From: Ornithodoros turicata
Taxonomy: Eukaryota > Arthropoda > Arachnida > Ixodida > Argasidae
Direction: 5' to 3'
Length of the DNA stretch: 64,000 bases
Assembly: GCF_037126465.1 (NCBI RefSeq)
Contig: NC_088208.1
Location: 38,912,685 to 38,976,684 of the forward strand
Part shown: piece after piece, positions 12,980 to 15,226 of the stretch
How positions within the stretch are numbered: the stretch's first letter is position 1
Layout: every line of letters begins with the position of its first letter
The notes under the pieces: model-generated
Databases searched by the model: none
Told to the model about the DNA's origin: nothing
The model's input: only the letters and a program-made list of their open reading frames with translations
Position numbers and translations under genes: made by a program

Positions 12980-13089
12980 ACTTTGGTGTGAGTTCCTGGC
13001 TTGCCACCGGTGGCAACCTATCCAGACAGAAGTTCAGGCATACATTCGTGGGCACTTCATGTTGGATGGCGCCAGAGGTCATGGAACAG
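12980..13089 (+). CDS. fray: fray copy 1 exon 5 (activation segment)
   Basis: 110 nt from acceptor GAACAG to donor GTGCGG. It supplies DFGVSSWLATGGNLSRQ, then KFRHTFVGTSCWMAPEVMEQ. The T-loop threonine before FVG is kept, but the conserved proline of GTPCW is serine here, and the usual KVR is KFR. Confidence 0.9.
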
Positions 13090-13137
13090 GTGCGGTAGCA
13101 CATACCCCGGCCATATTTGACTCGAATGCATAAAAAC

Positions 13138-13275
13138 AATGTTTTATTATTTTATTTTTATTTTTTATATTTTTATTTTTTATATATTTATTATTTATTT
13201 ATTTTTATATATTTATTTATATATTATTTTTATTGTTTTATTATTTATTTTTATTATATTATAAAAACAATATTA
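13138..13275. repeat. T/A-rich low-complexity tract, unit 1
   Basis: Irregular TTATTTT repeats in intron 5 of copy 1; the counterpart lies at about 62373-62505. Confidence 0.85.
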
Positions 13276-13322
13276 TATTCTTATTTTTGCTGAGACAACG
13301 GAGATTGTCGTTTTGCCTTCAG

Positions 13323-13424
13323 GTAACAGGGTACGACTTCAAGGCTGACATTTGGAGCTTCGGAATCACCGCGATTGAGCTTGTGACCGGGACAGCTCCG
13401 TACCATAAGTACCCACCCATGAAG
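13323..13424 (+). CDS. fray: fray copy 1 exon 6
   Basis: 102 nt from acceptor TTGCCTTCAG. It encodes VTGYDFKADIWSFGITAIEL through APYHKYPPMK (kinase subdomains IX-X). The following intron is only 66 nt, in frame and without stops. Confidence 0.9.
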
Positions 13425-13490
13425 GTGCACAAACATGCTTCCGTAATGTTTGTTGGGTACTCATGTAAGCTTTTGCCAAAATTTATGCAG

Positions 13491-13624
13491 GTGCTTATGC
13501 TGACCTTGCAAAACGACCCTCCTACGTTAGAAACTGTCAGTGAAGACAAGGAACAGTACAAAAACTACGGAGAGTCTATACGAAAAATGATAATGGAGTG
13601 CCTGCAGAAGGATCCTTCTAAACG
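13491..13624 (+). CDS. fray: fray copy 1 exon 7
   Basis: 134 nt after ATTTATGCAG. It encodes VLMLTLQNDPPTLETVSEDK through ECLQKDPSKR and ends in phase 2 at GTAAGC. Copy 1 has YGESIRK where copy 2 keeps YGKSIRK. Confidence 0.9.
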
Positions 13625-13714
13625 GTAAGCACAGCTGAACACTGGATATAGGGAGTGGTGCGTGTACTTCACACAGTTACACACCACTAACACGGTAGGG
13701 TTTCTGAATTCCAG

Positions 13715-13763
13715 GCCAACAGCAACAGAACTTCTCAAACACCAGTTTTTCAAAAAATCAAAG
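13715..13763 (+). CDS. fray: fray copy 1 exon 8
   Basis: 49 nt after AATTCCAG. It completes R, then PTATELLKHQFFKKSK, the end of the kinase domain, with donor GTATGT. Confidence 0.9.
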
Positions 13764-14108
13764 GTATGTGAGGGGAATGCCCTTTCATTGCTTTCATCAA
13801 AGCAGCACATAGCATGCATGGTAACGTAGTTCTGCATGTTAGGGAATTTAAGTTGTCAGGAAATAATCTACAAAAACGATACGATCAAGGAAGCTGTGGA
13901 GTCGGAGTTCTGCAATGCCATGTTTTTAGAACTGTTATCATTCCTACCTATCAAAACTCCCCATTACTGATCAGTACCTGATCGATATCTGATGTGTACG
14001 ACTTATGTGCATTACCTACACACTTTGTTCTTCTGTAGTGTGACATGTCTCAGTTTTACGTTCACTAAAACTGAAGCCTTCAGTTGATATAGTGTGCACG
14101 TGTTTCAG

Positions 14109-14174
14109 GACAAGAGATACCTTATGCAAACGTTGCTCACATGTGCTCCATCTATAGAAGCTAGGGCGCAAAAG
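14109..14174 (+). CDS. fray: fray copy 1 exon 9
   Basis: 66 nt after GTGTTTCAG, encoding DKRYLMQTLLTCAPSIEARA and QK. It corresponds to the PF1 region next to the kinase domain. Donor GTAAGG. Confidence 0.88.
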
Positions 14175-14250
14175 GTAAGGAGCGATTTGTGGTGGAAGGA
14201 GTAGGCATAAGTTCCTCAATCTGTTATGTAAGCTGCCATTTTAATTTATA

Positions 14251-14586
14251 CAGGGTGGTCCACCAACCATGATAGAAATTCGTGCATCTAATTAGTATCG
14301 TGAATTTATTTAGGCAATTGCCATTGTATTACGAGTGGGATTATGTGCTATACTGAGTAAAATGACCAAGGGGAACCCATTTTCGCAAAGAAAACGTCAG
14401 GTTGCCTTGGGAAATTTCTGAGTTCAATTCAAGAAATTAACTTTACATCAATTGAAATGAAATAAGAATGTTACCAATACATATGCGTCAAAAGTTATTG
14501 GGAGGAAAAAATCCCTCGGCCGCGTGTCTCTCCGGGGCCTACGTTTTTTTACTACGAATTTCTATCATGGTTGGTGGACCACCCTC
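14251..14586. mobile_element. mariner-type MITE in fray copy 1 intron 9
   Basis: 336 bp, ends CAGGGTGGTCCACC and its complement (one mismatch at the tip), with about 30 bp of near-perfect inverted repeat containing AACCATGATAGAAATTCG. TA on both sides. Copy 2 (63470 region, TTATATATCCATTT) lacks it. Confidence 0.75.
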
Positions 14587-14637
14587 TATATCTATTTACA
14601 GTTATCACGGCATAATAAATCCACTTTGGTTGTGCAG

Positions 14638-14745
14638 CTGAAAAACTGTAAAAGGGTTCCTGGGGCAGGTGGGTGGCTCCATAGGACAGAGACAGGAGAC
14701 TGGGTATGGTCGGACGGAGAGGACGACGATTCTTCAGACGAACGG
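14638..14745 (+). CDS. fray: fray copy 1 exon 10 (S-motif region)
   Basis: 108 nt after TTGTGCAG. It encodes LKNCKRVPGAGGWLHRTETG, then DWVWSDGEDDDSSDER. The family S-motif around the second WNK phosphosite reads SGRLH in copy 2 and GGWLH here, so the serine and arginine are lost. Donor GTAAGC. Confidence 0.88.
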
Positions 14746-14835
14746 GTAAGCGGGATCGGGAACGGGGACGTGGTTGTTCCCGACAGACTGCTCAGTGCAA
14801 TTTCATTGCTCCTTTAATGCTGCTTGTTCAGGCAG

Positions 14836-15015
14836 GACCTAGCGGCCAGAGAAGAAGCCATTCAATAGGCCAACCAGTCAACAAGTTCCTCGGACAGCGC
14901 CATCGAAAACCCCTCTGCACCCGCAGACCACGATGCCAGTACAACTTCGCGCACCCCTTCGGGCTCCCCTTCGGGCTCCGGTACGGCGGGATCTGGCAGC
15001 ATCCTCTCACAACAG
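14836..15015 (+). pseudogene. fray: fray copy 1 exon 11 with in-frame stop
   Basis: 180 nt between acceptor GGCAG and donor GTAAGG. It reads DLAAREEAIQ then TAG at 14866-14868, then a Ser/Gly-rich linker that would end SILSQQ. Copy 2 has AAG at the same codon and a 9-nt longer Gly/Thr repeat. Confidence 0.85.
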
Positions 15016-15139
15016 GTAAGGATTCAAAACATTCCTGTTCTGCGTTGGTAGATTCTGCCAGGGTTGGTTACCGAAAATATTATTGTTTTCGTTTTCCGTT
15101 TCCGGTAACTGAAAACTGGGCTTTCCGTTTCTCAAACAG

Positions 15140-15226
15140 AAGGGTGCTTCGAGTTGTCAGACGGACTAGACGCACTAAACATCTTGGACGAAGCTCTGGA
15201 CGATGCATCCACGGAGGGCATTGACT
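15140..15226 (+). pseudogene. fray: possible fray copy 1 exon 12
   Basis: After AAACAG one frame reads GCFELSDGLDALNILDEALD then DASTEGID, an acidic stretch ending at donor GTAAGG. That frame needs a phase-1 predecessor, but exon 11 ends in phase 0, and the in-phase reading meets TAG after nine codons. Either a further frameshift exists or the exon is wrongly assigned. The copy 2 equivalent lies beyond the window. Confidence 0.4.

What the first reader, a model, noticed from the sequence alone, without database searches (positions are those of the whole stretch)
13081..15226. Copy 1 loses regulatory residues and acquires a stop before the docking domain
Copy 1 has TAG for AAG in exon 11, GTSCW for GTPCW in the activation segment, and GGWLH for SGRLH in the S-motif that holds the second WNK phosphosite. 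Copy 2 keeps the consensus at all three. This is either a pseudogene or a truncated kinase that has escaped WNK control and lost the domain that binds RFxV-type substrates.
Basis: partly seen in the sequence, partly recalled or inferred. Interest (0 to 1): 0.75.

Follow-up and report, generated by a model that had tools for sequence, protein, structure and literature searches.

The report
Broken kinase fused to broken homeobox
In a soft tick, a tandem duplication copied the front of a salt-balance kinase gene and the back of its neighbouring homeobox gene, joined them end to end into a hybrid gene that seems to be decaying, and left one complete copy of each parent on either side.

Summary
The sequence facts hold: copy 1 has TAG where copy 2 has AAG (14866-14868), GTSCW for GTPCW (P to S at 13057), and S to G plus R to W in the S-motif (14668, 14674). 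The interpretation needs revising. The organism is the soft tick Ornithodoros turicata. Copy 1 did not lose its docking (CCT) domain to the stop; its duplicate never included it. A tandem duplication of a neighbouring homeobox gene plus the 5' part of OSR1/fray ended in OSR1 intron J, so copy 1 runs straight into a duplicate homeobox gene without its start. A complete homeobox copy lies just left of the window, and OSR1 copy 2 is complete. The public annotation reads copy 1 as a 569-aa kinase-homeodomain chimera: an acceptor 4 nt upstream changes the frame of exon J and bypasses the TAG. Copy 1's 12 replacements fall without regard to site conservation, and the homeobox half has a new stop, a hAT insertion and no 3' end. 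Best reading: a junction chimera in decay, possibly transcribed. A functional kinase-homeodomain protein is not excluded; its only hints are an open frame and an unchanged recognition helix. Transcription could not be tested.

The parts
2911..2983 (+). Copy 1, first coding exon of the annotated model (MAETGC...GEVI); preceded in the same exon by an upstream coding stretch from about 2740 with a 15-nt deletion relative to copy 2
   Evidence: tblastn of P0015/P0001; exons joined reproduce P0015 exactly
11296..11408 (+). Copy 1 exon A (P-loop GVGATA, CAIK lysine)
11859..12109 (+). Copy 1 exon B; followed by a GC-AG intron, as in copy 2
12659..12714 (+). Copy 1 exon C (HRDIKAGN)
12980..13089 (+). 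Copy 1 exon D, activation segment; D to N at 13015, S to F at 13033, P to S at 13057; T-loop Thr kept
13323..13424 (+). Copy 1 exon E
13491..13624 (+). Copy 1 exon F; K to E at 13572
13715..13763 (+). Copy 1 exon G
14109..14174 (+). Copy 1 exon H
14638..14745 (+). Copy 1 exon I, S-motif: S to G at 14668 (phosphosite), R to W at 14674
   Evidence: PMC4512625 for the site
14832..15015 (+). Copy 1 exon J. The annotated start 14832 (AG not present in copy 2) puts it in the +1 frame; the ancestral start 14836 gives the TAG at 14866-14868
   Evidence: copy 2 has TTCGGGCAG
14866..14868 (+). TAG in the ancestral frame, AAG in copy 2
15131..15140 (+). Junction of the tandem duplication: OSR1 intron J joined to the inside of homeobox exon 1; its AAACAG is the acceptor in the annotated model
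15140..15226 (+). Homeobox copy B (hbx-B), 5'-truncated exon K
16781..16889 (+). hbx-B exon L
18373..18532 (+). hbx-B exon M, first part of homeodomain (R3G, F8L, E17Q, V28I, F29V, E32K relative to hbx-A; homeodomain numbering recalled)
18804..18963 (+). hbx-B exon N, recognition helix; GAG in hbx-A is TAG here at 18909-18911
19739..21589 (+). hAT-like transposon in what was the last homeobox exon (PF05699 in ORF 21136-21447)
21590..21784 (+). Remnant of hbx-B last exon (DLLKLALDSAVESTTPPAS), cut off at 21784
28043..28108 (+). Distal first exon of OSR1 copy 2 (isoform X3), similar in some hard-tick isoforms; no counterpart found upstream of copy 1
58194..63878 (+). OSR1 copy 2, exons from MAETGC to exon J; continues past the window to the CCT region at about 64447-65568

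Best explanation
Copy 1 is the junction product of one tandem duplication. The ancestral order was homeobox gene then OSR1/fray, on the same strand. A unit reaching from inside homeobox exon 1 to OSR1 intron J was duplicated head to tail. The outer copies stayed complete (homeobox hbx-A at -4125 to -253 relative to the window; OSR1 copy 2 at 58.2-65.6 kb). The inner copies were truncated and lie end to end: OSR1 without its CCT exons, then a homeobox gene without its start codon. Shown: the anatomy, the junction, open outer copies, replacements in the kinase half that ignore site conservation, and disabling lesions in the homeobox half. Inferred: one event rather than two; and, if transcribed from a proximal promoter, the acceptor for 14832 gives the 569-aa chimera while the ancestral one gives a 364-aa kinase ending at the TAG, neither with the CCT domain needed to dock WNKs or RFxV substrates. 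The most likely state is a decaying chimeric pseudogene, perhaps kept as a truncated kinase for a time.
For: Copy 1 and copy 2 share introns and flanks (322-15131 with 55542-63987, four pieces 83-95% identical), and hbx-A and hbx-B share introns at 3.8% divergence; clean non-coding sequence on the kinase side differs by 4.8%, so one event can explain both. The match to copy 2 ends at 15131 and the match to hbx-A begins at 15139, inside its exon 1. Homeobox and OSR1 proteins come from contigs of the same length in 3 of 4 hard ticks for which both were listed (Ixodes scapularis, Haemaphysalis longicornis, Dermacentor variabilis; not Rhipicephalus appendiculatus, whose contigs are short), so the genes were probably linked before. 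Kinase: 12 replacements; copy 2 carries the tick majority residue at 11 of 12, copy 1 at 0 of 12. The 12 changes ignore conservation (mean 0.837 against 0.870 over 354 sites, P 0.27; 6 of 12 at sites at least 98% conserved), while 19 differences shared by both copies against the tick majority avoid conserved sites (mean 0.637, 0 of 19). hbx-A against hbx-B: of 21 amino-acid differences, stop included, 10 are placed on B, 0 on A, 11 not placed; hbx-B also has a hAT insertion and a lost 3' end.
Against: The chimeric frame is open for 569 codons over 15 exons with 13 GT-AG introns and one GC-AG. The kinase exons hold no indel; under neutrality the chance of no indel is 0.07, of no frameshift about 0.17. 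The kinase half has fewer replacements than neutrality predicts on two of three yardsticks: 12 observed against 17.8, 22.0 or 35.6 expected, with P 0.09, 0.0135 and 0 of 2000 simulations. Eight of eight motif strings looked for, among them the catalytic ones, are present in copy 1. So some constraint after the duplication is possible.
Confidence: 0.78

Rival explanations
1. A functional new gene: the chimera makes a kinase without WNK docking that carries a homeodomain, kept by selection, as the public gene model reads.
For: Model P0015 is reproduced exactly from the window; Pfam recognises both domains; the frame is open throughout, and the acceptors for 14832 and 15140 together keep it in frame; codons 106-132 of hbx-B, which cover the recognition helix, hold 0 of the 24 codon differences from hbx-A (a stretch picked after seeing the data).
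Against: Changes at invariant kinase sites (D177N, P191S, K263E, R331W); homeodomain core change F8L and loss of the tail. The two halves changed at different rates (12 of 836 against 21 of 391 non-synonymous sites, Fisher P 0.0002), so they do not look like one protein under one regime. P0015 is the only protein with both domains among the 120 listed of 7031 and the 120 listed of 1620. The +1 frame of exon J is open in copy 2 too, so its openness is no sign of selection.
Confidence: 0.08
2. A truncated kinase (364 aa, or with a foreign tail) without CCT that still works, for example as a constitutive or dominant-negative fray; the homeobox half is baggage.
For: The kinase half changed less than the homeobox half; motif strings kept; the nine introns from the first coding exon to exon I keep proper ends.
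Against: The replacements ignore site conservation; the S-motif serine is gone; in SPAK a CCT point mutation alone abolished co-immunoprecipitation with WNK1 and markedly reduced activity (PMC4512625, abstract and passages); the distal first exon at 28043 has no counterpart in unit A.
Confidence: 0.12
3. Assembly artefact: two haplotypes of one homeobox-OSR1 locus were joined head to tail.
For: The layout, complete-truncated-truncated-complete, is also what a false join of two haplotigs gives; read depth could not be tested here.
Against: Divergence of 4-5% plus many large insertions seems high for alleles (judgement, not tested); the junction is gap-free with a short filler or altered microhomology; and lesions sit in the two inner truncated copies while both outer copies stay open, which real duplicates predict and haplotypes do not.
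Confidence: 0.05

Closest known systems
OSR1/SPAK (fray), germinal-centre-kinase VI subfamily (subfamily name recalled)
   Same: Kinase domain with catalytic motifs and T-loop Thr; 354 codons aligned to copy 2 with 12 replacements
   Different: No CCT domain, S-motif Ser replaced by Gly, GTPCW proline replaced by Ser
Tick paired-like homeobox gene (Ixodes 'homeobox protein ARX isoform X2', P0250, and five relatives from other hard ticks)
   Same: Exons K to N align; homeodomain region 50-53 of 66 residues identical (hbx-A 58-60)
   Different: hbx-B lacks the first 30 codons and start, has a stop after the homeodomain and a broken last exon
[quoted passage not shown] passages read)
   Same: 5' part of one gene joined to 3' part of its neighbour at the duplication junction; [quoted passage not shown]
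   Different: A kinase-homeodomain pair in a tick, with 4-5% neutral divergence between units; whether it is fixed in the species was not tested

Membership tests
OSR1/SPAK/fray kinase | Kinase domain of this family with catalytic residues | tested here: met
   PF00069 1.8e-62 on P0015; motif strings present; best solved relatives of a copy 2 fragment are SPAK and OSR1
OSR1/SPAK/fray kinase | CCT docking domain (PF12202) | tested here: not met
   Absent from P0015; only chance-level matches in the window; two places in the genome, neither after copy 1
OSR1/SPAK/fray kinase | T-loop Thr and S-motif Ser phosphorylated by WNK | tested here: not met
   Thr kept, Ser replaced by Gly (sites from PMC4512625)
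Tandem-duplication chimera | Junction joins 5' part of one gene to 3' part of its neighbour, outer copies complete | tested here: met
Tandem-duplication chimera | A spliced chimeric transcript | not testable with these tools
   No RNA-seq available; only the annotated model P0015
Unprocessed pseudogene | Disabling lesion in the ancestral frame | tested here: met
   TAG at 14866 and missing 3' exons; homeobox half lost its start, has a stop at 18909 and a hAT insertion
Unprocessed pseudogene | Relaxed constraint | tested here: met
   12 changes ignore site conservation; the rate test is mixed
Unprocessed pseudogene | No functional product | not testable with these tools
   No expression or activity data
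Processed pseudogene | Introns absent | tested here: not met
   Introns kept
Paired-like homeobox gene | Start, homeodomain and conserved C-terminal tail all intact | tested here: not met
   Homeodomain present, start and tail lost

The most novel reading that the evidence does not exclude
The soft tick makes a kinase-homeodomain protein from this locus: an OSR1-derived kinase freed from WNK docking and joined in frame, through a frame-shifted exon J, to a fast-changing homeodomain whose recognition helix is unchanged, so that an ion-homeostasis kinase domain is carried to DNA.
Probability: 0.06. Interest if true: 0.8.

Novelty: new member of a known kind. Interest (0 to 1): 0.36.

Why it matters
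It is a clean example of how a tandem duplication builds a chimeric gene and what then happens to it: the outer copies stay open, the two inner halves change at different rates, and yet two acceptor sites keep a 569-codon frame open. It also shows that a public gene model named 'OSR1-like' is a kinase-homeodomain hybrid without the docking domain, so it should not be counted as a second working fray in ticks without transcript or activity data.

Tried and rejected
Considered and rejected: that the stop removed the CCT domain; that 15140-15226 is an OSR1 exon (it is part of homeobox exon 1); a processed pseudogene (introns kept); positive selection on hbx-B. The last looked strong at first (20 replacements, stop left out, against 6.4 expected on one branch, 0 of 2000 simulations reaching it), but only 10 of 21 differences can be placed on B with the six tick outgroups, and 10 against 6.8 is not significant (P 0.15). 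It is not excluded: if all 21 were on B, the Poisson chance would be 1e-5. Exon J was aligned between the copies; I drew no conclusion about selection on its frame. P0241, a 500-aa homeobox protein of Dermacentor silvarum with repeated homeodomains, was left out of the homeobox alignments.

Left without result: a whole-genome search for further OSR1 or homeobox copies. The genome tool answered once and was busy 20 times. Copies elsewhere in the genome are therefore not excluded, apart from what the PF12202 search shows. Branch-specific dN/dS with nucleotide outgroups was not done, since no other tick DNA was at hand; replacements were placed with proteins, synonymous changes were not. Introns BC, DE, HI, IJ and the stretch 15016-15131 (13-26% divergent, low complexity or badly aligned) were dropped from the neutral yardstick; keeping them would raise it and make the kinase shortfall larger. 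For placing kinase changes, one search used 18 of the 22 sequences taken as ticks; they include isoforms and unnamed entries taken as ticks by similarity. One search counted one codon too many (355 for 354) because exon 1 was taken 3 nt too long; the differences are not affected. One search stopped with an error and was redone.

Full report
Organism and genes. A protein search with the spliced translation of copy 2 returned an Ornithodoros turicata protein at 100% identity over the whole query (P0001, 'serine/threonine-protein kinase OSR1-like isoform X3'). It also returned a second O. turicata protein at 97% over 84% of the query (P0015, 'OSR1-like', 569 aa) that carries a homeobox domain. 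Pfam confirms kinase plus OSR1_C (CCT) for P0001, and kinase plus homeodomain without CCT for P0015. Joining 15 exons of the window reproduces P0015 letter for letter, with 13 GT-AG introns and one GC-AG intron. So copy 1 is annotated publicly, as a kinase-homeodomain chimera.

The observation. The S-motif serine is the second WNK site of OSR1 (Ser325 in RRVPGSpSGRLHKT; the T-loop site is Thr185 in RKpTFVGTP; PMC4512625, abstract and passages read). The T-loop threonine is kept in both copies. The proline changed is in the GTPCW stretch just after it.

What lies after copy 1. A search of the window with copy 2's CCT region gave only two chance-level matches (E 0.68 and 0.91). The CCT exons of copy 2 lie just beyond the right edge, at about 64447-65568. 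A family search of the whole genome with PF12202 found two places: copy 2, and an exon on another contig that reads like a WNK (the WNK name is by recognition from memory, and the tool calls its counts lower bounds). Exons 15140-15226, 16781-16889, 18373-18532 and 18804 onward encode a paired-like homeodomain protein. In six other tick proteins aligned here it is a stand-alone gene product of 325-359 aa. In 3 of 4 hard ticks for which both proteins were listed, homeobox and OSR1 come from contigs of identical length (132,052,651; 294,493,102; 275,516,037 bases), which I take as the same contig; in the fourth, Rhipicephalus appendiculatus, they lie on different short contigs.

The duplication. 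Left of the window, at -4125 to -253 in window coordinates, lies a complete homeobox gene: five exons by my splice sites and one open frame of 305 codons plus stop. It matches the homeobox copy in the window, introns included, except that the window copy begins inside exon 1, 30 codons after the start. Copy 1 and copy 2 of OSR1 match from 322/55542 to 15131/63987 with several insertions. At the join, copy 1 leaves the copy 2 intron at 15131 and enters homeobox exon 1 at 15139. The simplest account is one tandem duplication of a unit from inside homeobox exon 1 to OSR1 intron J. The short stretch at the join, AAACAG, serves as the acceptor in the annotated model. The two parent sequences share CATCC(C)GGAA-like letters at this place, so microhomology is possible; a short filler is equally possible.

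Two products. With the ancestral acceptor, exon J starts at 14836 and the protein ends at the TAG after 364 aa. With an acceptor 4 nt upstream, absent in copy 2, exon J is read in the +1 frame, the TAG is passed out of frame, and the homeobox exons follow in frame. The +1 frame of exon J is also open in copy 2, so its openness in copy 1 is no sign of selection.

Selection on the kinase half. Copy 1 and copy 2 differ by 12 replacement and 21 synonymous codons over 354 codons (dN 0.0145, dS 0.098, see the codon-count remark in Tried and rejected). With 18 tick sequences, isoforms included, copy 2 carries the majority residue at 11 of 12 sites; at one (17) neither copy does; at none does copy 1 (at site 111 copy 1's residue is found in 4 of the 18). 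The 12 changes sit at sites as conserved as average (0.837 against 0.870 in 96 sequences not counted as ticks, P 0.27), with 6 of 12 at sites at least 98% conserved, where 187 of 354 sites are. As a control, 19 differences shared by both copies against the tick majority sit at variable sites (0.637, none of 19 at such sites; difference between the two sets P 0.015). Purifying selection does not seem to have filtered the changes that copy 1 fixed. The rate test is less clear: 12 observed against 17.8 (all clean non-coding), 22.0 (gene-body introns) or 35.6 (half of dS) expected, with P 0.09, 0.0135 and 0 of 2000 simulations. An early period of constraint followed by release fits both results.

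Selection on the homeobox half. hbx-A and hbx-B differ by 21 replacement codons (one a stop) and 3 synonymous ones in 172 codons (dN 0.056, dS 0.024), with 3.8% divergence in introns. By a rule of at least 4 of 6 ticks, 10 are on B, none on A and 11, the stop among them, cannot be placed. The homeodomain region of hbx-A matches hard ticks at 58-60 of 66 residues, hbx-B at 50-53. hbx-B also has TAG for GAG at 18909, a hAT-like element in its last exon (PF05699) and loses its 3' end at 21784. Replacements per site differ between the two halves of the chimera (12/836 against 21/391, P 0.0002), which argues against one protein kept as a unit. Against plain decay, an excess of replacements on hbx-B over neutrality is not excluded, and codons 106-132 around the recognition helix are untouched.

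Promoter. The distal first exon of OSR1 (MVPKEVIHRLF... in Amblyomma and Dermacentor isoforms, MNNGMVPKDVIHRLF... here) lies at 28043-28108 and has no counterpart upstream of copy 1 in the 20 kb left of the window or before exon 1. Copy 1 would depend on a proximal start. Whether it is transcribed is unknown.

Verdict. The finding is real but is better described as the junction chimera of a tandem duplication, most likely in decay. [quoted passage not shown] For print on this case: searches for Ornithodoros with OSR1 and for Fray, WNK and tick found no paper; one for tick with 'oxidative stress responsive kinase' found a single paper, on GABA receptors by its title and abstract (listing only); one for kinase domain, homeodomain, fusion protein, chimeric gene and exon shuffling together found one general essay (listing only). 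The library holds open-licence papers only.

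Noticed in passing
G000:C8 left flank, window coordinates -4125 to -253 (locus L003): Complete paired-like homeobox gene, 305 codons in five exons, the open partner of the broken copy in the window; at 305 aa it falls between the length ranges of the two homeobox protein searches, which may be why neither listed it.
   Followed up: yes
window 21785-55541: A block of about 34 kb in unit B without counterpart in unit A, holding the distal OSR1 exon and open frames at 22.5-24.5 kb that look like an M13/neprilysin-type protein (recalled; Pfam gave no such match).
   Followed up: partly
window 3530-8517, 8764-9869, 14250-14587 and 15406-16444: Stretches in the introns of copy 1 and hbx-B that the partner copies lack; 14250-14587 has inverted ends (GGGTGGTCCACCAACCATGATAGAAATTCGT and its complement), as a small DNA transposon would.
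   Followed up: no
window 12109 and 61400: GC-AG intron within the HRD motif of both OSR1 copies.
   Followed up: partly
window 18373-18532 against -1915 to -1756: Four neighbouring codons (73-76) of hbx-B all differ from hbx-A within about ten bases, and several other differences come in close pairs: clustered substitutions of unknown cause.
   Followed up: partly
window 40618-40690: tRNA-Ser (gga) predicted by ARAGORN.
   Followed up: no
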